Positions 5,513 through 52,217 of a DNA stretch of 64,000 bases are shown one piece after another (the first letter of the stretch is position 1; each line of letters begins with the position of its first letter). Under the pieces are notes generated by a model, which did no database searches, was not told where the DNA came from, and saw nothing but the letters and a program-made list of their open reading frames with translations. This DNA is from Phragmitibacter flavus (GTDB taxonomy: Bacteria > Verrucomicrobiota > Verrucomicrobiia > Verrucomicrobiales > Verrucomicrobiaceae), in contig NZ_VAUV01000001.1 in NCBI RefSeq assembly GCF_005780165.1, positions 124,001-188,000 of the forward strand, written 5' to 3'. A program made the position numbers and the translations under genes.

Positions 5513-5516
5513 GAGT

Positions 5517-6377
5517 TTAGAGGCGCCCTCCGCCGGATGCTTTTTTCGTCCGATAGTCAGGGTTGTCCTGTGCCGCTGCCATGTGGCTCCACAACCTCAT
5601 GTCCCGCAGTTCTTCAATGCTGTGCAACCGCACCGCGCCATCTAGAAATGCACACACCGCCTTGCCGCCATATCGTGCATCGACATGACCATAATCTTTT
5701 GCAGAAGAGGCGCTGGTCCATTCGATGTCCTTCCAGTTGGTGCCGGTCAAATTGGGGGGCGTGAGGAAGCAATATCCATCCACCTGTTCCTCTCCCATCT
5801 CGCCATTCGATGCAGAAGCAAAGACCAGCGGGGCAGAGCTTGCCTGGCTCAGGGAGGTGAGACAATCGGACGTCGATACCGGGTTTGCACCGTTGGAACG
5901 TGAACCACCAACAAACTGATGATTCATGCCCAAGGCGGGATAGAGGCTCACCAGATAGTGATCGTTTTTGTCGAACTGAGAGGCATTGCGATTCACCAGC
6001 ACCGTGCCTTCCATGACGTAGTCAAAAAATTCCGCCAAACGGTAGGGATAACGTTGCGCTGCGGGTCCATGCACCGCATCGCCATTCGGCAATTCAATGA
6101 CTCCCACCGTCAGATCATTCCCCGGAAGCAAGATGCCGTAGTTGTCTGCTGGATAAGTCAAATAAGCGCCGACCAGACTTTTTGCCGCAGTGATCTCACG
6201 AGTCTTCGCAGCCTGCTGGAGGGCCACCTTGGTTCCAGCGAAACCTAGCGAGGAAAGGATGGCGATGATGCCAATGACCACCAACAGCTCGATAAGGGTA
6301 AAGCCTGATCGACGACCCCTCGACGGGTTGTGGGGACAGTTCATTTGATTCTGTTTTAGTTTCAGTTTCATACTCAT
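5517..6377 (-). CDS. Type II secretion/type IV pilin-like pseudopilin
   Basis: The protein carries a prepilin N-terminus: a basic leader ending R-R-S-G, then F-T-L-I-E-L-L-V-V-I-G-I-I-A-I-L, with the conserved glutamate at +5 of the mature form. The rest is a soluble C-terminal domain with a late region (Y-G-G-K-A-V-C-A-F-L-D-G-A-V-R) of the H-X9-DG-like type seen in Planctomycetes and Verrucomicrobia pseudopilins. ATGs at 6377 and 6344 are both possible; the first follows a GGGAG about 10 bases upstream and gives 286 residues. The gene sits directly before the large PEP-CTERM gene, which suggests coordinated export or display. Confidence 0.85.
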   Translation of the reverse strand: MSMKLKLKQNQMNCPHNPSRGRRSGFTLIELLVVIGIIAILSSLGFAGTKVALQQAAKTREITAAKSLVGAYLTYPADNYGILLPGNDLTVGVIELPNGDAVHGPAAQRYPYRLAEFFDYVMEGTVLVNRNASQFDKNDHYLVSLYPALGMNHQFVGGSRSNGANPVSTSDCLTSLSQASSAPLVFASASNGEMGEEQVDGYCFLTPPNLTGTNWKDIEWTSASSAKDYGHVDARYGGKAVCAFLDGAVRLHSIEELRDMRLWSHMAAAQDNPDYRTKKASGGGRL

Positions 6378-6479
6378 TGAAGGAAGCTCCCGCCGCACCG
6401 TCCGAACCCTGCTCAAAGGTGCACGCAGCCCTCACCCAGACCCGCGTGTTTTTGCACGGATGAATGCGACGGGAAGATT

Positions 6480-7169
6480 TTATCTGACCAAGGAGCGCCG
6501 GCGACGCATGAACAAAGCGCCCAGTGCAAGACCCCCAAGCATCAACCGCGAAGGTTCAGGGACGACTGCTGCATTGGTCTGAAGTTGAAAGGCTTCATAT
6601 CCGGTGTGCGCCTCGCTGTTGAACCAGGTCAGCGTGATGGTTTGACCCGCCGTGAAATTCAAGTTCGACCAGCTATATCCGATTCCCACCACGGCACTGT
6701 CAGTGGTGATTGGAACCACGTTCTCGGGAGAGGCTGCCAGACCATTGAGCAGCACACCGTCACCACCAAAACCGCCTGCCGTGGTCAAACCTTGGAAAGC
6801 AAGATCGGTCAGGGTCCCGGAAGCCACCGTCAACACCATGGAAAACTGGGTGCGGGACCACAAGGTGTAGAAGGTTTCATTCGCATTGGTCGGACCGAAA
6901 GGATTGGCAGGGGCGGGATTGCCAGGATGATAGGTCTGACCTGGAGTCGCCGAGGCGGTGAGTCCGATGGTGACGTTGTTCGTGCTGGGATTTCCCGGGA
7001 TGCCCGAAGCAAAAGCATAGGAGGGTTGATAATTTCCCCCCGCGAACAGATCCCAAGAGGCCGTGGTGCCTCCCGTATAGCCGTAATTGGTGAAAGCAGA
7101 GATGGCGGCTTGTGTTCTCCCGGCGGTAGACAGAAGGACTGCGGAGACGACAATGGCTAAGATCTTCAT
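6480..7169 (-). CDS. PEP-CTERM sorting domain protein
   Basis: A 229-residue exported protein. It has a signal peptide (M-K-I-L-A-I-V-V-S-A-V-L-L-S-T-A-G), a beta-rich body with many Gly, Thr, Asn and aromatic residues, and a C-terminal V-V-P-E-P-S-R, hydrophobic segment and R-R-R-R-S-L-V-R. No enzyme motif was seen. The start at the ATG 7169 is preferred over a TTG four codons earlier. About 100 bases separate it from the pseudopilin gene downstream, so it may open the minus-strand run that ends at 908. A structural or surface-coat role is inferred from the sorting tail only. Confidence 0.85.
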   Translation of the reverse strand: MKILAIVVSAVLLSTAGRTQAAISAFTNYGYTGGTTASWDLFAGGNYQPSYAFASGIPGNPSTNNVTIGLTASATPGQTYHPGNPAPANPFGPTNANETFYTLWSRTQFSMVLTVASGTLTDLAFQGLTTAGGFGGDGVLLNGLAASPENVVPITTDSAVVGIGYSWSNLNFTAGQTITLTWFNSEAHTGYEAFQLQTNAAVVPEPSRLMLGGLALGALFMRRRRSLVR

Positions 7170-7267
7170 AGGAGAATTCAATTCGATTCACAACCTTTTG
7201 TTGCGAATGCGTCTCACTACCATCTTTGCTGATTGTCTGCTTGCCTGCGCTTGCACTTTGATTAGCC

Positions 7268-39238: not shown

Positions 39239-41461
39239 TCAGGGCGTTTTTTCCGCCTCTGCCAATAGCAGCGATGCAATCTCCCAATCATACCACTTGG
39301 GGAAGATCGCCTTTTCCTCGTTGGTGTTGTCGACCCGCGGTTTTCTGATGATGGAACGAGCCGACTCCAGCCCGGCTTTTGATTCCTCAAGGTTTCCAAG
39401 CTCTCGGTGTGAAACCGCCATCAGAACGCGGAGGGCGGCAGCGCAGATTTCCCGAATGTTGGGAGAGAAAATGGTTCGCTGACCGATCTCGATGACCTTG
39501 GCAAAGTTACCTTTGCGGTAGTAATAGAGAGATAGTGACAGTCCTTCCCACGCCGGAAAAGGTCCTTCAACATACTCGTTGATTTGTTTCTCACACAAGG
39601 CAGCCGCCCCTTCCAACTGCTGCAACATCTGGGGCGATGCTTTGGTGATGAGGCAGGCTTTCAGAATGTGCTCCGCTTGTAGAGAGTCAGATACCGGCAA
39701 ATGGCGCGCCAGAGTCTCTTGCCGAAACTTTTCGTATCCAATATTGTCTCCGAGTTTTAACAGTGCCGGAGCCGTTACCAGAAGGTCAGTTCCACGAAGA
39801 ATTTCTTCAGCGCGATTCATTTTTGTGGCCTGCGCCATGAGCCGATAACATTCCACCGCTTCTGACCATCGATCATAAGTGGCATACCAGTTACCAAGCG
39901 TCCTGAAAACCGACGAGGCTTCTTTGGAAGGTTCAATGGAGACCAGCGGGTTTAGCTGCAACAACTCATCCGCCTCACTTACTTTGCCTTCCCCAAGCAG
40001 GAAGGCGGCGTAGGAAACATTCGCTCTTGATTGAGCCTGACGTCGCAAGCGCAATTCCTGATCGCGCGATCTTTCGGCTTCAAGGCTCAAGCGCTCCTGC
40101 TCCTTAAGTGCCGCTTTCTCGCGGAGATACAAAGTGGTGGAGGTTCCAAATCCGAACAGGATGGAAAGGATGGCGGCTAGTGCGGAAAAGAACGGCACGC
40201 GATTGCGCCGGACAAACTTCGTGAAGGTGTAGAGGCCGTTGGGTTTGCGGGCCGCCACGGGTTTGTTGTCGAGATGCCTCTTCAGATCCAGCATGAGGGC
40301 ATTGGCCGTCTCATATCGCGCATTGCGATCTTTATCGAGCGCCTTCATCACGATCCAATCAAGATCTCCTTTGATGCTGGAAAGCAATCGAACGGGATCG
40401 GTGCCGCGCGCATCCGCGATGGCCTGCGCTTCGCTCGCGCTGAATTCACCAAGACGCGTGGATGGTTTGAGATACTGATTGTCCAGGATCGCTTTGCGAA
40501 TGCCGGACATGCCGGAGTTCGGCAGCTTGTGAAAATCCAATGGAGTGGCGGAAGTCAGCAGTTCATAAAACAACACGCCAAGGCTGTAAACATCGCTGCG
40601 GGTGTCGATGTCGATGCCGATCATCTCCACCTGCTCCGGACTCATGTAGGCGGGGGTTCCGATGAACTGATCATGCCCCGTGATCAAAGGTTGCACCTTG
40701 TAGTCGGCCACCACTGCTTTCGCGATGCTGAAATCAATCACCTTGGTCACGCGCTGGTTGCCTGAACCACCGACCAGCACGTTGGATGGTTTGATGTCGC
40801 GGTGAATGATTCGTTTGGAATGCGCGTGCTGGATGGCGTCGCAGACCTGGATGAAAAGTTCGATGCGCTGCCTGATATCGAGTTTGTTCTCATCGCAGTA
40901 GCGGGTGATGGGGATTCCCTCAACGAGTTCCAACACGAAATAGGGGTTGCCATTGTGAAAGCCGCCCACATCCAGGACCTTGGCGATGTTGGGGTGATCC
41001 ATGATCGCGAGCGCCTGACGTTCGATGTCAAATCGAGCTTTCGCCAGAACGCTTTCGGTATCGAGATGGAAGATCTTGAGGGCGACCCGCCGCTTCACGG
41101 GATGGGCCTGTTCCGCTTCATAGACGTTGCCGCTTCCTCCAGAGCCAAGACAGCGAAGCAGACGGTAGTCTCCGATCGTCGCTCCTAGCTCAACCGTGGT
41201 TGAAGGGTCGTCAGCAACGGCCGGTCGCTGCGGAAGTTCTCCAACCAGCCCGCCTGCCAGTTGGTCACGAGCCTCGCGCGCTTCCAGAAAAAATGACGTG
41301 GCTTCTCCTGCCGATTCCAGAAGCCTTTCCATGCGATCCTGACCTTTGGGATCATCCTTGAAGGTGCGCTTTAGAAATTCCTGACGCAGGCTTTCATCTT
41401 CGAGAGAAAGGGCGGTCTCAAAAATTAAAGTATCGACTTCCTGATTCAGCGAACTTTCCAT
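39239..41461 (-). CDS. Membrane-anchored serine/threonine kinase with helical-repeat C-terminus
   Basis: A 740-residue Hanks-type kinase. The order is an N-terminal helical part, the kinase domain from about residue 99 to 370, a membrane segment (F-F-S-A-L-A-A-I-L-S-I-L-F-G-F-G, about residue 430) and a TPR-like C-terminal region. The G-loop is G-S-G-G-S-G-N-V-Y, the ATP lysine is Lys129 (V-A-L-K-I), the catalytic loop H-R-D-I-K-P-S-N has Asp222. The usual D-F-G is D-F-S (Asp243-Phe-Ser245). The A-P-E-type motif reads A-Y-M-S-P-E-Q. It overlaps the ECF sigma gene by 16 bases, a coupling typical of ECF-kinase pairs in this phylum. Confidence 0.93.
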   Translation of the reverse strand: MESSLNQEVDTLIFETALSLEDESLRQEFLKRTFKDDPKGQDRMERLLESAGEATSFFLEAREARDQLAGGLVGELPQRPAVADDPSTTVELGATIGDYRLLRCLGSGGSGNVYEAEQAHPVKRRVALKIFHLDTESVLAKARFDIERQALAIMDHPNIAKVLDVGGFHNGNPYFVLELVEGIPITRYCDENKLDIRQRIELFIQVCDAIQHAHSKRIIHRDIKPSNVLVGGSGNQRVTKVIDFSIAKAVVADYKVQPLITGHDQFIGTPAYMSPEQVEMIGIDIDTRSDVYSLGVLFYELLTSATPLDFHKLPNSGMSGIRKAILDNQYLKPSTRLGEFSASEAQAIADARGTDPVRLLSSIKGDLDWIVMKALDKDRNARYETANALMLDLKRHLDNKPVAARKPNGLYTFTKFVRRNRVPFFSALAAILSILFGFGTSTTLYLREKAALKEQERLSLEAERSRDQELRLRRQAQSRANVSYAAFLLGEGKVSEADELLQLNPLVSIEPSKEASSVFRTLGNWYATYDRWSEAVECYRLMAQATKMNRAEEILRGTDLLVTAPALLKLGDNIGYEKFRQETLARHLPVSDSLQAEHILKACLITKASPQMLQQLEGAAALCEKQINEYVEGPFPAWEGLSLSLYYYRKGNFAKVIEIGQRTIFSPNIREICAAALRVLMAVSHRELGNLEESKAGLESARSIIRKPRVDNTNEEKAIFPKWYDWEIASLLLAEAEKTP

Positions 41462-42063
41462 GGATCGGTCTGATGGTGGCCAAGATCGTCGCGGATGATC
41501 TGAAACAATTTGGCTTTGGCGAAGGTCCACTGCCTTTCGATGGTGCGCACGCTTTGCTTCATCACCGAAGCGATTTCCGCGCTCGTGCAGCCGCTAAAAA
41601 ATTTGAGGGTTACGATCTCCGCCGCATCCGGGTCTTCCACTTCCAATTGTTTCAATGCCTCCTCAATGAGCAGGAGATAATCCTGATCGGTCTGTGGATC
41701 ACTTAGTGCAGTGACAACTTGCTCGGTAAGTTGACGTTTCGCGGTCGCCCTGGCTCTGGCACGGTCCACCAGAATGCGCCGCATCGCCTCCGCCGCTGCT
41801 CCAAAGAAGTGGGCCTGACTATCCCAATCCGTATTGGCTCTGTCCAAGCGCAACCAGGCTTCATGCACCAGTGCCGTAGGTTGCAAGGTTTGCATGCCGG
41901 GCTCATAAGACATCTTGGATGCTGCCAGCCGTCGCAGCTTTTCATACAGGATGGGCATCAACTCATTGGATGGCAGACTCTTCCCAGGCTCCAGGCTGTC
42001 AAAACTCTCAGACCCGTTGATGCCGGTCAGGTCAGTGTTGTCAGCCTGGTGAGTGTTTCTCAT
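41446..42063 (-). CDS. ECF-type RNA polymerase sigma factor
   Basis: A 205-residue ECF sigma factor of the group often paired with protein kinases in Planctomycetes and Verrucomicrobia. Region 2 includes Y-E-K-L-R-R-L-A-A and A-L-V-H-E-A-W-L-R-L, then F-F-G-A-A-A-E-A-M-R-R-I-L-V-D-R-A-R. Region 4 is I-V-T-L-K-F-F-S-G-C-T-S-A-E-I-A-S-V-M and V-R-T-I-E-R-Q-W-T-F. It probably directs a stress or surface regulon, with activity adjusted by the kinase. The start at 42063 is used; another frame adds nine residues. Translation of the kinase start overlaps its end by 16 bases. Confidence 0.92.
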   Translation of the reverse strand: MRNTHQADNTDLTGINGSESFDSLEPGKSLPSNELMPILYEKLRRLAASKMSYEPGMQTLQPTALVHEAWLRLDRANTDWDSQAHFFGAAAEAMRRILVDRARARATAKRQLTEQVVTALSDPQTDQDYLLLIEEALKQLEVEDPDAAEIVTLKFFSGCTSAEIASVMKQSVRTIERQWTFAKAKLFQIIRDDLGHHQTDPWKVR

Positions 42064-42616
42064 TGAAAATGAATGGGGTGCGCTGCTCAAAGAATGATGG
42101 ATGCATCGGGATTTGGCAAGCGTCTATCGCGTCACATGAACCGACATCCGGGGACGCGGAACGAATTTTTTAAAACTTTGGCGGACTTGGCGGATCGATC
42201 TCGCATTCACTGATGACCATGATCCGACCATCTGGGAATGATACAATTCAATCGCATCATTTCAAGCCGCTAACTGAGCTTGCTGGCCCTACTCGGATCA
42301 AACTAAGTGACAAAAACGTCACCGTTACCCGGCATCTAAGTTGGCAACCAAAACCTACTCCAGAGTTCCCCTTGGCGTGTGATGTTAGTCATGCGCTGCG
42401 CGTTGGCACCAAGGTTTTGGGAACAATTTCTCCACCTATTTTGAGGTCAGTTACGACAAAAGTTCTATCTCGCTTTCGATGCAAATCTAAGGGCGCGTTA
42501 GTTAGGGTCCTGGAGGAAAACGGCGTCATTTGCTTGCTGGTAATATCCGGGCGGCAACCCCTGCCATGGTCAGGTCAACACCTTCCACATGTTAGTCATA
42601 GCAACCCGCTGAATTC
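42064..42616. other. Long upstream region of the Verru_Chthon-linked block
   Basis: About 550 bases between the divergent ECF sigma and PEP-CTERM genes. It contains a frame of 135 codons (42213-42620) overlapping the PEP-CTERM start as ATGA, but without a recognisable product or a codon pattern like its neighbours, so it is treated as leader. AT-rich stretches (TTTTTTAAAAC near 42165) may hold promoters for both directions. No long hairpin was seen. Confidence 0.5.
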
Positions 42617-45088
42617 ATGAGTTTACTTCGCTTGATCATCCTCGCCACCCTCGCCGCACCGCTCTCCTCCGGTCGTGCCGCCACCATCATCTCGACAGGT
42701 TCCGGTCACTGGAACACCAATGCCTCCACCATTTGGACTGGGGGTGCGGGGACGACAGGCCCACGAGTAGGAAACGCGGCGAGCTCCGCTGACAGCGTTG
42801 AAATTCTGGCAGGCCACATCATCAGTTTCTCCGCCGGAAGTCCTGGCACCGGCAGCATCGGAACCAACGACTTCGCTCTTGGCAATGGCAACGTCGTCAG
42901 CATCAATGGTGGCGTCTTTGCCCATGCCAACAACGGCGGCAACTGGTTCCGCCTCGGACAGTTCAGCGGCGGAACTTTTAATATCAACGATGGTGCCGCC
43001 TACCTTCCAGTAGGCAACGTTCAGGTCGGACTCGGACCCGCCGGCAGCAGCACGGTTCGCATCGGCGATGGCACCGGTGCAGCCGGATCGGCCATTCTTA
43101 ACATGCGCGATGCCTTCAACGTGACCAACGGCACGACCTCCGCCAGCGGACATATCTCCGAGTTGAACCTCGGTTCCCAGCAGGACAACACGCTGACCGG
43201 CAGTGCCGGATTCATCATCATTGAATCGGACGGCATTCTCGAAGGTGCCCAACACACCACCACCAATACCGCGACCGCTGGCAACCCGCCCAACTGGGTC
43301 TACAGTCAGAGCACCACCCGCATCGGCCGCTACGGCTCGGAAACGGAAAGCTCTCTCATCATCAAGGCGGGCGGGCGTTTCAATGCGCGCGGCAACATCG
43401 AAGTTGGAGCCAATCGCACTGCGGCAGGATTGTCCGCCAAAGGATTGCTTCACCTGGATGGCACCGGAGCCAACCTCACCCACAGCTTTGGCGACCTGAC
43501 CATCGGTTACACCGGCGACGGACGGATGATCATCGAGAACGGTGCCGAATACATTCGTCTCACCCACGCGGTTGATCCCATCAGTGGGGTCATCCCTCGC
43601 AGGAACACCCTCCACATCGGAAGAAATGCTGCTGGCGTTGGCACCCTTGATATTCGTTCCGGTGGGAAATTTATCCGCGACTCCGGCGGTAACGTCGGAG
43701 ATTTATACATTGGCACCAGTGGCCGGGGAACCGTCACCATCTCTGATGGCGGCGAATTCATCAACCGCTCCACCAACTGGGATTGGGTCGGTGTCGACCC
43801 CGGCGGTCAAGGAGCCATCATCGTTAACGAAGGAGGCATCTACACCTCAAGCGCCAATCTTGTGCTCGGTCGCGACGCAGCCAGCGGCTCACTGGCAGCC
43901 GCAAACGGACGGCTCGAAATCAACAACGGTCAGATGACGATTGGCGATATCCACATCGGCCAGGATGGCAGGGGCCATTTCCTCATGAATGGCGGCACCG
44001 CCTCTGTGAACAGACTCACCATGGCTCGAGGCACGGGAACCAGCACTCTCGACATCAGGGACGGGGAACTCACCATCCGTGGCAACTTCTTCGCCGGCGG
44101 CGATTCCGACGCGGCCTACGCCAACAGCACCGCCCCCGGCATCGCGACCATCACCCAAAGCGGCGGCACCGTCACCGCCACGAACGCCATGTCCATCGGC
44201 CTCTCCGCCGGACACACTGCCACGTTCGACATGACCGGCGGTGAGTTCTACCACGAAATCGGCGATATCACCATCGGGGAAAAAGGAACCGGCACGACGC
44301 GCATTGGCAAGGACGCCACCTTCATCGACCAGTCCAACCAAGTGGATTCGTTTCTGTTCGTTGGGCGTCAAGACGGGTCCAATGGCATCCTCATGGTCGA
44401 TGGCTACCTTGAAAAAACCAATGCCGCTGCGGGCATCCGTGTGGGTTATGGCAGTGATGCAGCCGGTCTTGAGAACAATACTACTGGTGTCGGATTGATC
44501 GGTGGAACTGGGGAGATCAAAGCACCTGGCAGCATCTGGGTGGGCAATCGTGGCACCATCACCGGCGGCACCAAAACAACGGCGGGGCTGCTGACCATTG
44601 ATGGCGGACTCAACCTGGTTTCCACCGTTGGTTCAGCCACGCAAAGCACCCTGTTCGTCAACTTCGACAGCAATTTTGAACTCGGTGCCGACCGCATCGA
44701 GATCCATGGGGCGTTCAACGTCGACGGTGCCGTTATCGACGGCATTTGGGATGGCGGCGGTGAGGTGGGTTTTGACAGCCGCTACTGGATCGTGGTGAAC
44801 AGCGACGCAGATCAGATCGGCGCAGGGTTGTTTGCCAACATGAGTTTCGACTCCACCCATGAACTGGCGAATGCCTACCTCAATGATCTCTATGCCGATG
44901 GTTTCATCACCCTTGGCGGGATGGAATTCGCCATGTTCTACTCAGCCGACTTTGAAACCAGAGCCACCACCGGCGGCAACGACCTGCTCCTTTCCGCCAT
45001 GGGGTCCGTGGTGCCCGAACCCTCCATGGCGACGCTGTTCGGTGCTGGCCTTGCCGCCCTCGTGATGCGCCGTCGCCGTCGTCATTGA
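42617..45088 (+). CDS. Large PEP-CTERM protein of the Verru_Chthon block
   Basis: An 823-residue secreted protein. It has a signal peptide (L-L-R-L-I-I-L-A-T-L-A-A-P-L-S-S-G), many short beta-strand repeats rich in Gly, Asn and Thr (L-H-I-G-R-N-A-A-G-V-G, G-R-L-E-I-N-N-G-Q-M-T-I-G) typical of a beta-helix passenger, and a tail V-V-P-E-P-S-M-A, a hydrophobic segment and R-R-R-R-R-H. It is the gene just before cassette A (19 bases), so it is likely the first gene of the operon and a candidate substrate of the pseudopilin-like assembly. Function in display or fibre formation is inferred. Confidence 0.85.
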   Translation: MSLLRLIILATLAAPLSSGRAATIISTGSGHWNTNASTIWTGGAGTTGPRVGNAASSADSVEILAGHIISFSAGSPGTGSIGTNDFALGNGNVVSINGGVFAHANNGGNWFRLGQFSGGTFNINDGAAYLPVGNVQVGLGPAGSSTVRIGDGTGAAGSAILNMRDAFNVTNGTTSASGHISELNLGSQQDNTLTGSAGFIIIESDGILEGAQHTTTNTATAGNPPNWVYSQSTTRIGRYGSETESSLIIKAGGRFNARGNIEVGANRTAAGLSAKGLLHLDGTGANLTHSFGDLTIGYTGDGRMIIENGAEYIRLTHAVDPISGVIPRRNTLHIGRNAAGVGTLDIRSGGKFIRDSGGNVGDLYIGTSGRGTVTISDGGEFINRSTNWDWVGVDPGGQGAIIVNEGGIYTSSANLVLGRDAASGSLAAANGRLEINNGQMTIGDIHIGQDGRGHFLMNGGTASVNRLTMARGTGTSTLDIRDGELTIRGNFFAGGDSDAAYANSTAPGIATITQSGGTVTATNAMSIGLSAGHTATFDMTGGEFYHEIGDITIGEKGTGTTRIGKDATFIDQSNQVDSFLFVGRQDGSNGILMVDGYLEKTNAAAGIRVGYGSDAAGLENNTTGVGLIGGTGEIKAPGSIWVGNRGTITGGTKTTAGLLTIDGGLNLVSTVGSATQSTLFVNFDSNFELGADRIEIHGAFNVDGAVIDGIWDGGGEVGFDSRYWIVVNSDADQIGAGLFANMSFDSTHELANAYLNDLYADGFITLGGMEFAMFYSADFETRATTGGNDLLLSAMGSVVPEPSMATLFGAGLAALVMRRRRRH

Positions 45089-45107
45089 TGCCTGCTTTGT
45101 CTCCTCA

Positions 45108-48100
45108 ATGAATCCATTTTCCCATCATCCCTCTCCGCGCCGCCAAGGCATCGCTTTGGTAATGGTGCTGGTGGCGATCGCCGTCATCTCCATGTTGGTG
45201 CTGGCTTTCCTGGCGAACGCTCGCACCGAACATCGTTCCGCGTCGGCCTTTTCGGACATCGCTTCGGCGCGGACCTTGGCGGAACTGCCCGTCAACATCG
45301 CGATCGGGCAAATCCGCCGTGCGACCGAACAAAACGGACTGGAGAAAACCTGGGCTTCACAGCCGGGACTCATCCGCGTGTTTGGCACCGAGCCGGATGC
45401 CCAGAACAGTGGACCGCGCTCGAAGACCACCGCCCTCTACAAATTGTATTCCGATGAAACCATGGTGGTTGCTCCCGCCAGTGCCAGCGCCACCGCCGAT
45501 GGCATGAACATCAATGTGGTCAGAAACGCCCTCGACAGCGACGCCAATGATCTCGCCGACTGGCAGAATGTGCCAGGCATGTATGTGGACATCAATGAAC
45601 CCGCACCGGTGATACAGGAAGGGTCCAACAAGGTTCAGACCGTGTTTCCCATCAGTGATCCGCGCGGCACTTTTTCGCGTGACAACGGCCGGCCAGTGGA
45701 TGGCTTCCAATTTGATGACAATGCGGTGCCCGGCACTGAATCCCCCTCCAGTGTCGAAGACATCAGTGCGCGCCTGCCCATGCCGGTGAAGTGGCTTTAC
45801 GTGTTGGCCGACGGTCAGGTGCTGCCGCCGACGGGAGGCAATGCCACCACCGGCCTGTCCTTTGGAGGCGATGGCGCGGCCGTTCCTAGTGAAGCGAATC
45901 CCATCGTCGGACGCATCGCGTTTTGGACTGACGACGAAAGCACCAAAATCAACATCAACACCGCCACTGAAGGAACGGGCTGGGATGTGCCTCGCGCCTA
46001 CACGGCCACAACCGTCAAGTTTGCCCGCCGCCAGGCTGCGCAGAACGAATATTCGAGATATCCCGGTCATCCCGCGCAGACTTCACTCAGCCCGGTGTTC
46101 CAGGCGTTTGGAGAAAAGCTGGTGGCGGAACCGTCCATGAGTGATGACGAACTCGCCACGGTGCTGGAGCGCTATCATCGCATCAGTCCACGAGTGCCTT
46201 GGGGCGGAAGCATGGGCGGCACGCAACCCACCGCCGCTGCCGTGGTGGCAGACAAGGAGGACCGCCTTTACACCACACTTGATGAGATGCTCTTCAATCG
46301 AGACCGCGACGATCAAGACCCCGCGTTGACCCAGCAGGACATCGCCACCTCGAGATTTTTCCTGACCACCCACAGCCGGGCTCCAGAGCTCAATCTCTTC
46401 AACCAGCCGCGCATGATGTTATGGCCCATTTCGGCAGACCCGGTGGACCGCAACGCCAAGGACAAACTACTGTCCTTCGTAGGCACCGGTGGCGGCAAGC
46501 CTTGGTATTTTTCCCGACTGCAAAACTTCAAGACCGTGGACAACGCCGGCTCCGCCCAGCGCATCCGCGGTGATCTGGATCTGGATAACTCAACGGGCGC
46601 TTCGAGTGCCCTGGCACGCAACCGTGAGCTTTATGAAGATCACCTCATCCCGCTCACCGGTGGTAATGGCGGGAGCTCTGCTCATGACATTCCCGGTTTC
46701 GGCAGCAACTTTGCCGAGAAATACACTCCTCTGCGACGCGACCAGATCCTCACGCAGATCTTCGATTTCATGCGTTGGTCGGTCAACAGCTACAGCACTG
46801 GACTCGCTCCAAAATACACCTACACGCCGCCACGCGCTGGCGACCGTCGCGGTGAATCCTCCGCCGTGCCTCTCATCCCCGGCAACGACACCAAGGGATT
46901 TGGACGATTCCCCACCATCACCGAAGCGGCGATTGTCTTCATGGCCACCAGCAAACATCCCGTGACTGACGCCACCACCCAGATGCAGGCCTTCATCGCA
47001 CTGGAACCCTTCATCCCCGTGACCGGAGCCCCCTCAGCAGCCCCCAATGTTCGCTATCGAATCTCCGGTCTGAACACCTTTACCGCTGCTGGCAGACCCA
47101 TGCTGTTTCCCGCAGCGGCCACCATTCTCTGCAACACGGCAGGCGGTTATCTGGACTCCGCCGGCAGCACGGCATTCAACGGATTCGGCCAGCAATTCAG
47201 AATGGCCAATCGCGACTCTGGAGACCAGAAAGCTCGCGAGATGACTAGAGGAAAAGAACGTGACGGCTTCCCCTTTTGTAGCAGCTTCCTAACGGTAAGC
47301 AATCTCACCGAGTTCGCCTTCAGCGGAGGCACCATCACCATCGAAGTGCTCACCGGTTTTGCCGCTTCAGGCTCCGAGGAACTGGTGCAAAAGATCGAGC
47401 TCAACTTCCCGGCGGCGACCCTTAAAGTGCCGCAGATGCGCGGCGCCGACGCGGCCACCTACAACACCTTGGCCAAGCGCATTGACGGCTCTGCTGGCAA
47501 CTTTGTGAACACGTTGGTCCGGGATGGCGATGTCACCCGCAGCGTCGAAGTGGACGTCAACGGTCCGTCACGTGGCGACCTGCGTCTGCTTTGTGCAATG
47601 AGCGACGTGCCTGCGAACTGGTTCACCAGCCATCCCCGATACCCCGACACCAGTGTGGAAAGGCTGCACTTTCTGCGCGTCGACAGCCAGATGGTCAACG
47701 GTCAGTTTGGCCCATCCGACAGTGCCACAGGCCCGTTGGGCGTTGATCGCGGCGGACGCGTTTCCACCGTCAACACCGCAGGCACCCTCGTCAATGGCAT
47801 CTGGTATGCCCGCGACTCCATCCCCGCCGTGGTTCGCGGTCAAAATGGTGCGCTCAACCGCAACAACCGACCCGGTGATTTCGACAATGGCATCGGCCGC
47901 ATGGCAGACGGTCCCTACATCAACAAGGCCGACGAAAACAACATCAACAGCAACACCAGCGCTGTCGACGGTGATCTCGGCTACTTTAGCCGCCACAGTT
48001 TCGGAACCGAAAACGGCATCAGTTTCAGCCCCAACCGCCAGATCGCATCCGCCGTGGCTTTCGGTTCGCTGCCCTCCGGCATCTTCGGCAGTCAGGCCGC

Positions 48101-49013
48101 CAACGCCCACCAACCCTGGCAAACCTTGTTGTTTTCTCCTATTCCCGCCGCGCGCTCGACTCCTGCCGATCAGGAGCCGGATGAAAACGATCACGAAGGT
48201 TTCAAGGGTCCCCGCGATCACCTTTGGCTCGACCTGTTTTGGATGCCGGTGGTGGAGCCTTATGCGATCAGCGAATCCTTCGCCACCGGTGGCAAGATCA
48301 ACATGAATTACCAGCTCATGCCGTTCCGCCACATCGAAAGAAGCACCGGCCTTCACGCGGTTCTCAAACCCACCCTGCTCAGCGCCATCTCTCCGAACTC
48401 CGTCGGCGGCACCACCCCCGCAGGTCACACCAATGTGGGCGGAAAAAACTACAAGGAAGGCACCTCCCACCAATACGAACTCCACTATCAGGTCAATCGA
48501 TCCGAAACCCTCAAAGCGTTTTCCCGACGATTCAACTCCGGCGACGTTTTTCGCTCCGCCTCGGAGATCTGCGAAATCTTCCTCGTTCCGCAACGCATCG
48601 CCGGTGCCACTTACAATACCGACGCTTCTGCTCCACCGACCAGCTACGACGACATGGTCACCTGGTGGAACGGCAGCCTTAACAATGTCGACGCCTTCGA
48701 ACCCACCGGCGACAACAGCCGCGAAGCTCCCTACAACCAGCTTTATCCGCGACTCACCACCAAATCGAACACCTTCACCGTGCACTTCCGCGTGCAAACG
48801 CTCAAGAAAGCCCGCAGCACTCCTCAAGACCGCTGGCTGGAGGACGAGGACATGGTGCGCTCCGAACATCGCGGCTCCGCCACTCTCGAGCGTTATCTCG
48901 ACCCCAATGATCCCGAGCTCACCGTCCTCGCCAGCAATCCCCCGGACCCCACGCAAAGCTGGGATCAATACTACCGCTTCCGCATCATCAACCGCAAAAC
49001 CTTCTCCCCGTAA
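45108..49013 (+). CDS. Verru_Chthon cassette protein A (GspK-like giant pseudopilin)
   Basis: A 1301-residue protein of the family named Verru_Chthon cassette protein A. The N-terminus (R-R-Q-G-I-A-L-V-M-V-L-V-A-I-A-V-I-S-M-L) is a prepilin-type segment whose +5 residue is not glutamate, as in GspK/PilX minor pseudopilins. A long extracytoplasmic domain follows, with N-I-N-T-A-T-E-type GspK-like segments (S-T-K-I-N-I-N-T-A near residue 285). It is far larger than GspK (about 300-400 residues). The gene is followed 17 bases later by B. It should sit at the tip of a pseudopilus-like fibre. Confidence 0.9.
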   Translation: MNPFSHHPSPRRQGIALVMVLVAIAVISMLVLAFLANARTEHRSASAFSDIASARTLAELPVNIAIGQIRRATEQNGLEKTWASQPGLIRVFGTEPDAQNSGPRSKTTALYKLYSDETMVVAPASASATADGMNINVVRNALDSDANDLADWQNVPGMYVDINEPAPVIQEGSNKVQTVFPISDPRGTFSRDNGRPVDGFQFDDNAVPGTESPSSVEDISARLPMPVKWLYVLADGQVLPPTGGNATTGLSFGGDGAAVPSEANPIVGRIAFWTDDESTKININTATEGTGWDVPRAYTATTVKFARRQAAQNEYSRYPGHPAQTSLSPVFQAFGEKLVAEPSMSDDELATVLERYHRISPRVPWGGSMGGTQPTAAAVVADKEDRLYTTLDEMLFNRDRDDQDPALTQQDIATSRFFLTTHSRAPELNLFNQPRMMLWPISADPVDRNAKDKLLSFVGTGGGKPWYFSRLQNFKTVDNAGSAQRIRGDLDLDNSTGASSALARNRELYEDHLIPLTGGNGGSSAHDIPGFGSNFAEKYTPLRRDQILTQIFDFMRWSVNSYSTGLAPKYTYTPPRAGDRRGESSAVPLIPGNDTKGFGRFPTITEAAIVFMATSKHPVTDATTQMQAFIALEPFIPVTGAPSAAPNVRYRISGLNTFTAAGRPMLFPAAATILCNTAGGYLDSAGSTAFNGFGQQFRMANRDSGDQKAREMTRGKERDGFPFCSSFLTVSNLTEFAFSGGTITIEVLTGFAASGSEELVQKIELNFPAATLKVPQMRGADAATYNTLAKRIDGSAGNFVNTLVRDGDVTRSVEVDVNGPSRGDLRLLCAMSDVPANWFTSHPRYPDTSVERLHFLRVDSQMVNGQFGPSDSATGPLGVDRGGRVSTVNTAGTLVNGIWYARDSIPAVVRGQNGALNRNNRPGDFDNGIGRMADGPYINKADENNINSNTSAVDGDLGYFSRHSFGTENGISFSPNRQIASAVAFGSLPSGIFGSQAANAHQPWQTLLFSPIPAARSTPADQEPDENDHEGFKGPRDHLWLDLFWMPVVEPYAISESFATGGKINMNYQLMPFRHIERSTGLHAVLKPTLLSAISPNSVGGTTPAGHTNVGGKNYKEGTSHQYELHYQVNRSETLKAFSRRFNSGDVFRSASEICEIFLVPQRIAGATYNTDASAPPTSYDDMVTWWNGSLNNVDAFEPTGDNSREAPYNQLYPRLTTKSNTFTVHFRVQTLKKARSTPQDRWLEDEDMVRSEHRGSATLERYLDPNDPELTVLASNPPDPTQSWDQYYRFRIINRKTFSP

Positions 49014-49030
49014 CCCACAAATTTTATACG

Positions 49031-49570
49031 ATGAATCACCCAACATTTTCCATCAGCAAACAAGGGTTTTCCCTGCCCGAGGTAGCCCTGTCTCTGGGCA
49101 TTGCGGCCACTGCGCTGCTCACGCTTATCTCGCTGCTTCCCATGGGGCTCGACACCCTGCGCGATTCCAGCAACAAACAGGCCGAAGCCCGCATTGTGCA
49201 ATCCATCATGGACCGCTATCAAACCAGCGGCTGGCTCGAGCAAGACGACGGCGGCGGTCGCGGATCGGTGCTGCAAGACCGCACGCTATTCTTCGACCAG
49301 ACTGGCACCGAAGTTGCCAATGCGGCGGATTTCGACTGCAACTACGCCGTGCAAATCAGTGTCGGCAACACGCCCACTTTGCGGGGCGATGCCCGGGCCA
49401 ATGACTATCTGCGCCGCTTGATCGTTCGCATCACCGACAACGCCAAAAACTATCAATCCGCCCTTTCCAACGGTTCCGGCAAGTATCGCGAGCGCAGCGT
49501 GTGGATTGCCCTGCTCGAACAAACCGGCCCGCTTCCAGCCATTCCGACCACCACGGTCTCTTCCTTGTGA
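49031..49570 (+). CDS. Verru_Chthon cassette protein B (GspI-like pseudopilin)
   Basis: A 179-residue pseudopilin-like protein. The N-terminus K-Q-G-F-S-L-P-E-V-A-L-S-L-G-I-A-A has G/F at the cleavage site and the +5 glutamate. The soluble part is short. It is the second gene of the block, as in the Verru_Chthon cassettes known from Verrucomicrobium and Chthoniobacter, and is followed by C with a GTGA overlap. By order and size it corresponds to GspI. Confidence 0.88.
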   Translation: MNHPTFSISKQGFSLPEVALSLGIAATALLTLISLLPMGLDTLRDSSNKQAEARIVQSIMDRYQTSGWLEQDDGGGRGSVLQDRTLFFDQTGTEVANAADFDCNYAVQISVGNTPTLRGDARANDYLRRLIVRITDNAKNYQSALSNGSGKYRERSVWIALLEQTGPLPAIPTTTVSSL

Positions 49571-50649
49571 GAAGGGGATCTCCATCAACGAATCGGAACG
49601 CTGCATTCACCCTCATTGAGGTGCTCGTCTCGGTTTCCGTTCTGGCGCTGATGATGACCATCATTGCCGAGATGATGCGCCGCACCCAGGACACCGTCTC
49701 GAAGGCCAGTTCCCACGCGAGCGAATTCCAGGAAGGGCGCCGTGCTCTGGATGCCATCACGCATGCGCTCTCACAGGCCACCATGGACGCGGTGTGGGGT
49801 TATCGTCGCTCCGCCACCGATGCCAGCGTCATCACGGGTTATGAACGCGTGTCTGATCACCATTTCGTCCTTGCGCCTGCCGCCGAACTCCTTCCCCCCG
49901 ATACCACCGCCGAAGCCGGGCAGGCGGTGTTTTTTCAAGCGCCTTTGGGCAAGGTCAACGACGAAACCAAACGACGTCTGCATCATTTGATCAACGGCTG
50001 TGGATTCTACATCCGGTATGGCAGCGACCTCGACACTCGTCCCGCCTTTCTGCAATCCGGTCAGCCCGTTCAACTCAACCCGGATCGCAACCGATTCCGG
50101 CTCATGCAATACCTGCAACCTGCCGAGGACAGCATCCTCTACAGCAGCGGACTCGGACTCAACCGGCTCACCAACCGCAGTCAGGCACTTCAATGGTTTC
50201 AAAACGACCTCGACGCCACGTCGCAACCGCTCGCCGACAACATCCTCGCCCTCATCCTGATTCCCTATGCCGCCAATGTTCAGTCCGGCAGCGGCAACAC
50301 CACTATTGTTCCCGACGCCCATTACCAATACGACAGCCGCGACTTCCAATGGAGTGGACTTAATGACGACAACCAATCGCGCCGCCATCAACTGCCTCCC
50401 ATGGTGGGCGTTTCACTGATCATCGCCGACGAGCACAGCTATGAAGGCCTGGCCATACGCATGGGCGAATCCGCTGCCGCTGCTGCCATTCGTGCGGTTC
50501 TGACCGGAAAATTTTCTGATCATCACAAGCTTCAAGATGACCTCGCCGCAGTGGAGTCAGGCCTGGCCGCCCTGCCTCTGCATCACAAAATCCTCAGTGC
50601 CAACGTCGCCTTGCGCGGCTCCAAATGGATCTCCGAAAATGAACAGTAA
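49567..50649 (+). CDS. Verru_Chthon cassette protein C (GspJ-like pseudopilin)
   Basis: A 360-residue pseudopilin-like protein. The GTG at 49567 overlaps the B stop as GTGA and was chosen over a long frame from 49501. The N-terminal leader (V-R-R-G-S-P-S-T-N-R-N-A) leads to A-F-T-L-I-E-V-L-V-S-V-S-V-L-A-L, where the residue before the cleavage site is Ala instead of the usual Gly. The larger C-terminal domain would match GspJ. It overlaps D by 11 bases. Confidence 0.88.
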   Translation: MRRGSPSTNRNAAFTLIEVLVSVSVLALMMTIIAEMMRRTQDTVSKASSHASEFQEGRRALDAITHALSQATMDAVWGYRRSATDASVITGYERVSDHHFVLAPAAELLPPDTTAEAGQAVFFQAPLGKVNDETKRRLHHLINGCGFYIRYGSDLDTRPAFLQSGQPVQLNPDRNRFRLMQYLQPAEDSILYSSGLGLNRLTNRSQALQWFQNDLDATSQPLADNILALILIPYAANVQSGSGNTTIVPDAHYQYDSRDFQWSGLNDDNQSRRHQLPPMVGVSLIIADEHSYEGLAIRMGESAAAAAIRAVLTGKFSDHHKLQDDLAAVESGLAALPLHHKILSANVALRGSKWISENEQ

Positions 50650-51244
50650 AAAACGAACGAAAGGGTTCACCTTGGTGGAGCTGCTCTTTGTGGTCGCCAT
50701 CGTCGGCCTTCTCACCACCGTCGCCGTCGCCTCCGTGTCCGGTGCCCTGGCCAGCCAGCGGCTCTCCACAGCGATGCGCCAGTTGTCCGCTGACCTCCAT
50801 CAAGCCACCATGCTGGCAAGAAAGGAAAACCTTCCGGTGGAGCTGAGATTTTATCAGCTGCCACCTGCTACCCAGCCCGGTGCCATGGCCTGGCGGGCCT
50901 ACCAGATCGGACTGCTCAATGGCTGGGACGCAGAAGGCAATCCCCGTGTCAACTTTCCTACCGAGATGCAGCGTTTTCCCGAGGATGTGGTGTTGATGCC
51001 TGACGCCCAATACAACTCCTTCCAAGGACAACCCGTTCATCAAAACGCCTCCACCGGCCCCGCCGCGGATGCGCCCTATGTCAGCTATTTCATTCACAGC
51101 AACGGAGCCACCACCCTACCGCTCCATGCGCCTGCCGTGCTGACCCTCGTGCGCGAAACCACCAAAGGCATCCCCGCCACCCTGCCAAAGGATTTCCGCT
51201 CCATCGTCATCGACCCGCAAACCCACCAAAGCCGAACTTACTAA
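50639..51244 (+). CDS. Verru_Chthon cassette protein D (GspH-like pseudopilin)
   Basis: A 201-residue pseudopilin-like protein. The ATG at 50639, inside the end of C, opens a leader (M-N-S-K-K-R-T-K-G) then F-T-L-V-E-L-L-F-V-V-A-I-V-G-L-L with the +5 glutamate and a canonical Gly before the cleavage site. The soluble domain is GspH/FimT-like in size. It closes the A-B-C-D set; PEP-CTERM and nuclease-type genes follow on the same strand. Confidence 0.9.
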   Translation: MNSKKRTKGFTLVELLFVVAIVGLLTTVAVASVSGALASQRLSTAMRQLSADLHQATMLARKENLPVELRFYQLPPATQPGAMAWRAYQIGLLNGWDAEGNPRVNFPTEMQRFPEDVVLMPDAQYNSFQGQPVHQNASTGPAADAPYVSYFIHSNGATTLPLHAPAVLTLVRETTKGIPATLPKDFRSIVIDPQTHQSRTY

Positions 51245-51350: not shown

Positions 51351-52217
51351 ATGCGCCCATTTTTATCTTATCTTTGCAAACCTCTCGCATGCTGTGCGTT
51401 AACCGCCAGCTTGTTATCTCCTCTTACGGCAGCTACGATCATCGACGCGAACTTCAATTCAGGAACTTTTGCCGATGCAGGCTTGGTTGACTACAGCACC
51501 CTGGCAAATCCGACACTCACCGCTGGTATAGGGGTGGGTGGCTCAACAGGCTTGAACTTTGGCACCAATGGAGGATCCGCCACCGCCTCCATGACCATCC
51601 TGACCACCGCGAGCTTCTCCATGTTCGGCCAGTTTACTGTTAATGCGAATGGTTCGACAGCAACACGGATTGATGGCAGCGCCATGGCCTTTGGCTGGAC
51701 AAAGGCCTCGGAAGCATTCAGGCCATTTCAAGGCACTGTCAGCGGTAGTTCAGCGGTGGCCATAACAGACACCGTCATGGTCGGTCTCGCACGGACAGCA
51801 ACGGGTGGCTTCAGTCTTGGCTTTGGCAACGGTGCCACCGAATTGGTGAGCAGGAACCTCTTCGGAAACTCCGTGACCTTTGGCGAACTCACAGCAAACA
51901 ACTGGTATCGCCTGGAGGGAACGATTCAATACAACTCGTCGACAGGCACCTTCACTTTCCTGGATGTTTCTTTGGATGACTTCGGAACCAATGGCACCAC
52001 TGAAGTAAATGCCAATTTACTCTACGGCACCGGAGGCTCCCTTTCGGTGGCAGGCTTTGGATCGACTGGTCGTGCCATCTGGGCGAACAATTTAGACCGC
52101 GGCGTCTTATCCATGGACAACTACTATCTCGCCGCAGTGCCAGAACCTGCGGCCGCCCTTCTGCTTGGAGTAGGTGGATTTGCCATCTTATTGCGTCGCC
52201 GCCGTTCCCGCGTCTAG
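51351..52217 (+). CDS. PEP-CTERM protein downstream of the cassette
   Basis: A 288-residue secreted protein: signal peptide (L-A-C-C-A-L-T-A-S-L-L-S-P-L-T-A-A), a beta-rich body (I-D-A-N-F-N-S-G-T-F-A-D, N-N-W-Y-R-L-E-G-T-I) that resembles concanavalin-like jelly-roll PEP-CTERM proteins, and the tail A-V-P-E-P-A-A-A, hydrophobic segment and R-R-R-R-S-R-V. It lies about 100 bases after cassette D and so may be in the same transcript or have its own promoter. A candidate substrate of the same export route. Confidence 0.85.
   Translation: MRPFLSYLCKPLACCALTASLLSPLTAATIIDANFNSGTFADAGLVDYSTLANPTLTAGIGVGGSTGLNFGTNGGSATASMTILTTASFSMFGQFTVNANGSTATRIDGSAMAFGWTKASEAFRPFQGTVSGSSAVAITDTVMVGLARTATGGFSLGFGNGATELVSRNLFGNSVTFGELTANNWYRLEGTIQYNSSTGTFTFLDVSLDDFGTNGTTEVNANLLYGTGGSLSVAGFGSTGRAIWANNLDRGVLSMDNYYLAAVPEPAAALLLGVGGFAILLRRRRSRV

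What the first reader, a model, noticed from the sequence alone, without database searches (positions are those of the whole stretch)
45108..51244. Verru_Chthon A-B-C-D block looks like a GspK-I-J-H pseudopilus tip without a secretion core
Seen in sequence: four genes with prepilin-like N-termini in the order A (no +5 Glu, 1301 residues), B, C and D, with GTGA and 11-base overlaps between B-C and C-D. Established: GspK lacks the +5 Glu, and GspK-I-J-H cap the type II secretion pseudopilus; the Verru_Chthon A-D families were defined by their cassette order. Inference: the block is a specialised tip complex that uses ATPase, platform and secretin proteins from another locus. The giant A protein would be the exposed, possibly substrate-selecting, end.
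Basis: partly seen in the sequence, partly recalled or inferred. Interest (0 to 1): 0.85.

Follow-up and report, generated by a model that had tools for sequence, protein, structure and literature searches.

The report
Cargo-linked giant pseudopilus tip cassette
Four genes here encode parts that look like the tip of a bacterial protein-pushing piston, one of them oversized, and they travel as a unit with a giant surface protein that may be the load this tip pushes out of the cell.

Summary
In detail: A-B-C-D lie at 45108-51244 with the stated overlaps and pass the Verru_Chthon A-D cut-offs; A lacks the +5 Glu. A has the GspK fold: the AlphaFold2 model of a 38%-identical relative matches XcpX/GspK at Z 10.9/10.4 (next row 4.7); window A without its first 101 residues matches GspK at Z 7.0 (next 3.9). 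The extra residues include a variable beta-sandwich. No ATPase, platform or secretin match lies on this contig, but the genome has several elsewhere.

This is one of 15 A loci in the genome (27 in a relative), and they are linked to PEP-CTERM proteins, mostly giant: 8 of 15 A loci have one within 600 nt (0.37 expected), 12 of 27 in the relative (0.35 expected). Here it is 42617-45088, ending 19 nt before A. Of all genes called in the window, only these five match two Verrucomicrobium loci. One paralogue has a PEP-CTERM protein and A in a single open frame. Best reading: exchangeable, cargo-dedicated tips that share few engines. Export itself is untested; B's identity is unresolved; most relatives' cassettes (61 of 78) show no called PEP-CTERM neighbour.

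The parts
42617..45088 (+). Putative cargo: 823-aa protein with signal-peptide-like start, T5SS/PEP-CTERM-associated repeats and a C-terminal PEP-CTERM sorting signal
   Evidence: TIGR04393 29.3 bits (cut-off 23), TIGR02595 21.5 (16), PF07589 22.2 (20.7); 55% identical over 737 aa to the gene at the same place in L088 and L089, 52% over 813 aa in G247
45108..49013 (+). A: giant GspK-like minor pseudopilin (Verru_Chthon A), 1301 aa
   Evidence: TIGR02600 1432 bits; model of residues 102-1301 pLDDT 79.0, pTM 0.86; GspK 3ci0_K Z 7.0, 219 of 280 residues
45147..45164 (+). Prepilin cleavage site of A: Gly14 then I-A-L-V-M, so no Glu at +5
   Evidence: sequence
45909..45965 (+). Conserved motif 1 of A, residues 268-286 (G-R-x-A-F-W-T-D-D-E-x-x-K-x-N-I-N-T-A)
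   Evidence: alignments A1 and A2, several invariant columns; likeness to a GspK motif is recalled, not tested by itself
46893..47636 (+). Inserted, most variable part of A, residues about 596-843; beta-sandwich in both models
   Evidence: model range of the C2/YEATS-like rows; mean identity 0.20-0.30 in 50-residue blocks against 0.54-0.55 in the best-kept blocks; segment 606-835 is 200-364 residues long over 49 rows
48291..48308 (+). Conserved motif 2 of A, residues 1062-1067 (G-K-I-N-M-N)
   Evidence: alignment A1
49031..49570 (+). B: minor pseudopilin, GspI position by gene order
   Evidence: TIGR02598 187 bits; hhalign cannot choose between GspJ (70%) and GspI (59%)
49567..50649 (+). C: minor pseudopilin, GspJ-like
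   Evidence: TIGR02599 387 bits; hhalign to E. coli GspJ 95.1% over 78 columns, best of five references, nothing beyond the N-terminal part
50639..51244 (+). D: minor pseudopilin, GspH-like
   Evidence: TIGR02596 155 bits; TIGR01708 gspH 42.9 bits, below its cut-off of 80; hhalign GspH 94.6% over 64 columns, GspG 96.0% over 28
51351..52217 (+). Second PEP-CTERM gene after D, 288 aa; role uncertain, not conserved with L088/L089
   Evidence: TIGR02595 22.9 bits; no match
41446..42090 (-). ECF sigma factor, divergent; possible regulator, not shown to belong
   Evidence: PF07638 145 bits

Best explanation
Window 42617-51244 is a five-gene cargo-plus-tip operon. B, C, D and A make a minor-pseudopilin tip of the type II secretion kind, with A at the very end in the place of GspK (A: shown by structure; B, C, D: inferred from families, N-terminal profiles and gene order). 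The tip primes a pseudopilus built by ATPase, platform, major pseudopilin and secretin proteins encoded elsewhere in the genome (genes shown to exist; use by this tip inferred). The large variable domain inserted in A recognises the PEP-CTERM beta-strand-repeat protein encoded just upstream, after exosortase has handled its C-terminus, and the piston pushes it through the secretin to the surface (inferred). The genome carries about 15 such tips with different cargoes, each a plug-in for a few shared engines (numbers shown, sharing inferred).
For: A has the GspK fold: relative L161 A, pLDDT 86.3, pTM 0.88, XcpX 6utu_F Z 10.9 (217 of 238 residues) and GspK 3ci0_K Z 10.4 (254 of 280), next row 4.7; window A 102-1301 GspK Z 7.0 (219 of 280), next row 3.9. 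No +5 Glu in A. D-B-C-A in the five most divergent own paralogues, equal to gsp H-I-J-K; B stands directly before C in 70 of the 70 loci where both were called. Linkage to PEP-CTERM genes: own genome 8 of 15 A loci within 600 nt, null mean 0.37, reached in 0 of 20000 draws; independent genome G247 12 of 27 within 600 nt (null 0.35) and 18 of 27 within 2600 nt (null 1.12), 0 of 20000; 78 relatives: 17 of 141 neighbour slots against 21 of 568 background genes, Fisher p 5e-4. Block conservation: the only genes matching between the window and L088 or L089 are cargo, A, B, C, D; L038 and L107 share B-C-A-D plus a GH5 cellulase, 61% identical, and one more gene. L037: PEP-CTERM signal and A in one 2074-aa frame. 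Six of six cargoes scanned carry the autotransporter-type beta-strand repeat, and no autotransporter barrel family was reported for the window cargo or the six proteins, so an own exit pore was not seen. Few engines: five extension-type ATPases to 15 A loci here; eight to 27 in G247, none nearer than 19 kb to an A gene. Precedents seen as passages: MYXO-CTERM and GlyGly-CTERM proteins reach the surface through T2SS (PMC11980579); several tip sets sharing one machine in Myxococcus (PMC7541494; PMC12075869).
Against: No experiment. No complex could be predicted. Sequence profiles alone link A to GspK only over the N-terminal 65 columns (95%, E 3e-8); the rest is not significant. Foldseek alone gave no match at E up to 0.001 for either model. 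PDB profile searches with B, C and D found only the N-terminal pilin helix or nothing. 61 of 78 relatives' cassettes have no PEP-CTERM gene called next door, though the detector missed at least two seen by eye (L094, L111); in the own genome L038, L039, L041, L044 and L050 have none within 4 kb, and L041 and L044 have no B, C or D found within 6 kb. In G247 46 of 63 PEP-CTERM genes lie more than 2600 nt from any A gene. One T2SS locus already has its own weak H-I-J-K set. The fused frame was found in none of the 78 relatives and could be a lost stop or a sequence error.
Confidence: 0.5

Rival explanations
1. The quartet caps a type IV pilus, not a secretion pseudopilus, and the PEP-CTERM protein is a tip-mounted adhesin in the way PilY1 rides on PilX. 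The filament displays it instead of releasing or anchoring it.
For: PilX also lacks Glu5 and PilY1 is called an analogue of T2SS substrates in PMC7541494 (passages). The genome has three Amuc_1098-type pilus secretins over their cut-off, one of them 3.7 kb from the L048 cassette. Four PilT-like ATPase matches exist.
Against: The fold match is to GspK/XcpX. No PilY1 domain was reported for the window cargo or six other cargo proteins. Cargoes carry a membrane sorting signal, and one pair of orthologous cargoes is a GH5 cellulase, a usual kind of secreted enzyme. The L048 secretin is separated by three genes on the other strand.
Confidence: 0.25
2. Surface-protein islands: tip cassettes and PEP-CTERM genes sit together because both are envelope genes under common control or because such regions gain genes often; there is no physical partnership.
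For: Regulators (histidine kinase, response regulator) also cluster near cassettes: 7 and 6 of 323 near genes against 3 and 2 of 568 far ones. Most PEP-CTERM genes are not linked. Many relatives' cassettes lack a called PEP-CTERM neighbour.
Against: Only the five-gene block, not its surroundings, is conserved between window and L088/L089. Orthologous cassettes keep orthologous cargo. Gaps of 19 and 17 nt and overlaps. The in-frame PEP-CTERM plus A gene.
Confidence: 0.2
3. The giant A protein is itself the surface-exposed product (for example an adhesin), secreted by the shared engine as a terminal pseudopilin; the neighbour protein is only its matrix partner outside the cell.
For: A is 750-970 residues longer than E. 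coli GspK (327 aa), with a variable inserted domain. L041 and L044 are A genes without B, C, D or near PEP-CTERM genes.
Against: Most A loci sit with B, C and D (63 of 92 have all four called), which fits a tip assembly better than a lone adhesin.
Confidence: 0.05

Closest known systems
T2SS pseudopilus tip GspH-I-J-K (XcpU-V-W-X)
   Same: Four type III-signal pseudopilins; the K-like member lacks +5 Glu and has the GspK fold; divergent cassettes keep the H-I-J-K order; tip complex of P. aeruginosa is described as critical for recognising substrates (PMC6211770, passages)
   Different: A is four times as long as E. coli GspK; no engine genes alongside; 15-27 paralogous A loci per genome; a cargo gene in the unit; A scores 20.9 bits on the GspK model, cut-off 130
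NCBIfam Verru_Chthon cassette A-D (TIGR02600, 02598, 02599, 02596)
   Same: All four cut-offs passed; this is a member of that named but functionally unassigned set
   Different: The models name the families only.
Myxococcus interchangeable tips: three PilY1/minor-pilin clusters (PMC7541494) and four Kil/Tad tips (PMC12075869)
   Same: Several tip sets, few machines; large domain on the terminal minor pilin
   Different: Pili for motility and predation, 3-4 sets; PilY1 has its own conserved domain; no PEP-CTERM cargo described in the passages seen
MYXO-CTERM/myxosortase and GlyGly-CTERM/rhombosortase surface proteins
   Same: C-terminal tripartite sorting signal; transport across the outer membrane by T2SS; an internal MYXO-CTERM in a fused gene (MXAN_5598) resembles L037 (PMC11980579, passages)
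   Different: Different sorting enzymes; no dedicated tip cassette described in the passages seen
PEP-CTERM/exosortase system (PMC1569441, passages)
   Same: The cargo has the signal; three exosortase matches in the genome; defined on V. spinosum
   Different: I saw no link to pseudopilins in the passages read

Membership tests
T2SS minor pseudopilin tip (GspH-I-J-K) | Prepilin signal in all four members, no +5 Glu in the K member | tested here: met
   sequence; PF07963 over cut-off in C and D only
T2SS minor pseudopilin tip (GspH-I-J-K) | GspK fold in the terminal member | tested here: met
   Z 10.9/10.4 for relative L161, Z 7.0 for window A 102-1301; predicted models, Foldseek alone not significant
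T2SS minor pseudopilin tip (GspH-I-J-K) | A reaches the NCBIfam GspK equivalog cut-off | tested here: not met
   20.9 bits, cut-off 130; hence 'GspK-like', not filed as GspK
T2SS minor pseudopilin tip (GspH-I-J-K) | B, C, D are GspI, GspJ, GspH beyond the N-terminal helix | tested here: inconclusive
T2SS minor pseudopilin tip (GspH-I-J-K) | Gene order H-I-J-K | tested here: inconclusive
   window has A-B-C-D; D-B-C-A in 8 of 92 loci, plus one with an extra D
T2SS minor pseudopilin tip (GspH-I-J-K) | Encoded with GspC-G and L-M engine genes | tested here: not met
   no PF00437, PF00263 or PF00482 match on contig C1
T2SS minor pseudopilin tip (GspH-I-J-K) | The quartet forms one complex and binds substrate | not testable with these tools
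Verru_Chthon cassette A-D | Curated cut-offs of the four models | tested here: met
PEP-CTERM protein (42617-45088) | PEP-CTERM model over cut-off, exosortase in the genome | tested here: met
   TIGR02595 21.5 bits against 16, PF07589 22.2 against 20.7; three PF09721 matches over cut-off
Autotransporter (T5SS) for the cargo | C-terminal autotransporter barrel | tested here: not met
   no barrel family reported for the window cargo or six other cargoes, while PATR/TIGR02601 repeats are
Type IVa pilus tip FimU-PilV-PilW-PilX with PilY1 | PilY1 domain in the partner protein | tested here: not met
   no PilY1 family reported

The most novel reading that the evidence does not exclude
In Verrucomicrobiaceae, giant PEP-CTERM beta-strand-repeat proteins leave the cell through a T2SS-type engine fitted with exchangeable tips, each tip dedicated to the cargo encoded beside it and carrying its specificity in a giant GspK-like subunit; 15 to 27 such tips compete for a handful of engines. 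In one case cargo and GspK-like protein are made as one chain that two membrane proteases, exosortase and prepilin peptidase, would cut apart.
Probability: 0.4. Interest if true: 0.88.

Novelty: new variant of a known kind. Interest (0 to 1): 0.72.

Why it matters
How T2SS picks its substrates, and how PEP-CTERM proteins get past the outer membrane, are open questions (the second as far as the passages I saw go). A natural set of 15-27 cargo-tip pairs in one genome, most with one obvious candidate partner, would make specificity testable by swapping tips or inserted domains. It also gives a function hypothesis to four families that carry only a cassette name, and explains why these genomes have so many pseudopilin genes and so few engines.

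Tried and rejected
Sequence-only proof of A = GspK: hhalign of 54 A proteins (of 93 at hand) with 13 GspK-like proteins gives only the N-terminal 65 columns; seven sub-segments gave no significant match. PDB profile search with 15 A proteins found one chance hit (Prosaposin, E 3.1). Structure was needed.

B, C, D against PDB by profile: B none relevant (two chance hits), C weak N-terminal pilin hits at E 0.24 or worse, D many N-terminal pilin hits, FimU only at E 0.98.

First gene calls by longest ORF gave many spurious ORFs in this GC-rich DNA (15 of 76 loci with an adjacent PEP gene, 23 of 666 background). I replaced them with codon-trained calls; the direction of the result is the same. B, C and D were told apart by length (under 175, 175-264, above), so a few orders are wrong, for example L123. 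L041's A was not called by that script and is left out of the order counts (92 of 93 loci).

Rows dropped: the own-genome linkage test used 17 contigs of known length (4.45 of 5.91 Mb, 87 PEP genes). L042 is not counted there because its PEP frame overlaps A by more than 120 nt; read by eye it is adjacent, which would make 9 of 15. The C8 PEP gene was given its cargo half only.

More in-frame fusions: none in 78 relatives (16 had more than 60 open codons upstream of the match, none with a PEP-CTERM-like element).

G247 copy of the block (L212): cargo, A and C matched; B and D were not recovered by the simple ORF picker.

A viral origin was considered: two viral contigs carry an A fragment, 49% identical over residues 224-325; not followed.

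Prior art: searches found no paper naming Verru_Chthon or linking PEP-CTERM proteins to pseudopilins in Verrucomicrobiota; only open-licence PMC papers were searched. Passages of PMC13274419 report 67 pulG-like pseudopilin homologues in one Opitutales genome and suggest T2SS export of alginases; passages of PMC12487129 note pseudopilins enriched in two Verrucomicrobiae populations. All papers cited were seen as passages, none in full.
Full report
Observation. A lacks the +5 Glu, as do 15 of 15 own-genome A proteins and all 67 of 78 relatives in which the site could be placed.

What A is. A profile of A matches GspK only over the N-terminal 65 columns. Structure settles it better. A full-length relative, L161 A (1077 aa, 38% identical to window A), was modelled with pLDDT 86.3 and pTM 0.88. 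VIA-align puts XcpX (6utu_F, Z 10.9, 3.6 A, 217 of 238 residues) and GspK (3ci0_K, Z 10.4, 3.5 A, 254 of 280) far above the next row (4.7). Window A without its first 101 residues (pLDDT 79.0, pTM 0.86) matches GspK at Z 7.0, 4.0 A, 219 of 280, next row 3.9. Foldseek alone was not significant in either case, with 3ci0_K at ranks 6 and 5. So A is a GspK fold stretched by insertions. The most variable stretch, window residues about 600-900, covers the inserted beta-sandwich.

B, C and D. All are pseudopilin-like. C is nearest GspJ and D nearest GspH or GspG, over the N-terminal part only; B is unresolved. In 92 A loci (14 own, 78 relatives) the called orders are A-B-C-D 28, B-C-D-A 16, B-C-A-D 10, D-B-C-A 8, the rest partial or odd. 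B is directly before C in 70 of 70 loci with both. The five own paralogues least like window A have D-B-C-A, one with an extra D, which reads H-I-J-K if A is K.

Engines. The own genome (5.9 Mb, 99.9% complete) has five extension-type and four PilT-type ATPase matches plus one weak one, six secretins (three nearest GspD, all below its cut-off, three Amuc_1098-type over theirs), five GspF-like genes and three GspK-like genes of normal size. None of the ATPase, platform or secretin matches is on the window's contig. The C9 locus looks like a whole T2SS with its own G-H-I-J-K, though only G passes its NCBIfam cut-off. The nearest engine genes to any cassette are a lone GspF-like gene about 2.6 kb from the L044 A gene and an Amuc_1098-type secretin 3.7 kb from L048.

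Copies. There are 15 A loci in this genome, 12 over the model cut-off, and 27 in G247, a closed genome of another genus in the same family, 24 of them over it (my merging of the 40 rows). 14 of 15 family genomes match. Over 240 phylum genomes 135 match at E up to 0.001 but only 7 pass the cut-off (at most two candidates per genome were scored there).

The partner. A PEP-CTERM gene ends 19 nt before A. In this genome 8 of 15 A loci have a PEP-CTERM gene within 600 nt against 0.37 expected; in G247 12 of 27 against 0.35, and 18 of 27 within 2600 nt, room for B-C-D, against 1.12. None of 20000 random draws reached any of these. Of 63 PEP-CTERM genes in G247, 17 lie within 2600 nt of an A gene, 15 of them with frames of 600 codons or more. 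In the 78 relatives, mostly other families, the link is weaker: 17 of 141 neighbour slots against 21 of 568 background genes.

The block is inherited as a unit. Among all genes called in the 64-kb window, only cargo, A, B, C and D match anything in L088 or L089 (Verrucomicrobium sp. BvORR034 and BvORR106), at 55%, 70%, 72-73%, 66-67% and 59-60% identity. G247 has it too (cargo 52%, A 71%, C 64%). L038 and L107 share B-C-A-D, a GH5 cellulase with 61% identity and one further gene; the L107 version adds beta-strand repeats. L037 and L094-L096 share D-C-B-A and a related cargo. In L037 the cargo, with a PEP-CTERM signal at residues 676-699, runs in frame without a stop into A, whose cleavage site follows about 30 residues later. 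Topology would allow both signals to work, which is inference.

Mechanism. The simplest account is a plug-in tip: the quartet nucleates a pseudopilus on a shared platform, A at the end grips the cargo encoded beside it, and the piston drives it through a secretin. Shown: fold of A, linkage, block conservation, few engines per genome. Inferred: complex formation, engine sharing, cargo recognition, export. Six of six cargoes scanned carry autotransporter-type repeats, and no autotransporter barrel was reported for the cargoes scanned against Pfam, so another exit is needed. T2SS exit of C-terminally tagged surface proteins has precedents in MYXO-CTERM and GlyGly-CTERM, and tip exchange in Myxococcus.

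Limits. No complexes, no experiments. Many relatives' cassettes lack a called PEP-CTERM neighbour, five own loci have none near, two own A genes stand alone. The link may partly reflect surface-gene islands with shared regulators.

Noticed in passing
window 3302-7181, minus strand: A lone prepilin-like gene (5517-6416) between two genes with PEP-CTERM signals (3302-5512 and 6480-7181): a second pilin/PEP pairing in this window, without an A gene.
   Followed up: no
window 39239-42090, minus strand: Ser/Thr kinase and ECF sigma factor directly upstream, divergent from the cargo. Other cassettes (L037, L049, L107, L110, L111, L112, L090, L092) have histidine kinase and response regulator genes within three genes, suggesting one regulator per cassette.
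   Followed up: partly
L037:7958-14182 minus (G000 C8, about 143.5-149.7 kb): One 2074-aa frame holding signal-peptide-like start, beta-strand repeats, PEP-CTERM and a whole A protein.
   Followed up: partly
L044 (G000 C2:303500-323499): A gene without B, C or D found within 6 kb, near a lone GspF-like gene (C2:318031-318939) and recA.
   Followed up: no
L048/L201 (G000 C17): D-B-C-A cassette 3.7 kb from an Amuc_1098-type secretin, with two-component genes and a small PEP-CTERM gene between on the other strand.
   Followed up: partly
G015, G039, G045, G156 and others: Several frames of 1000-1500 codons per genome whose start matches the GspK model only at the N-terminus: giant GspK-like genes may be common well beyond TIGR02600.
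   Followed up: no
L086, L087 (IMG/VR contigs): Two viral-collection contigs carry an A fragment 49% identical to residues 224-325; could be host DNA.
   Followed up: no
L199 and L200 (G000 C6 and C18): Tandem giant PEP-CTERM genes (three and two) directly after D-B-C-A cassettes, so one tip may serve several cargoes.
   Followed up: partly
G247 C1:6538493-6543505: A gene with an in-frame stop: one apparently decayed copy.
   Followed up: no
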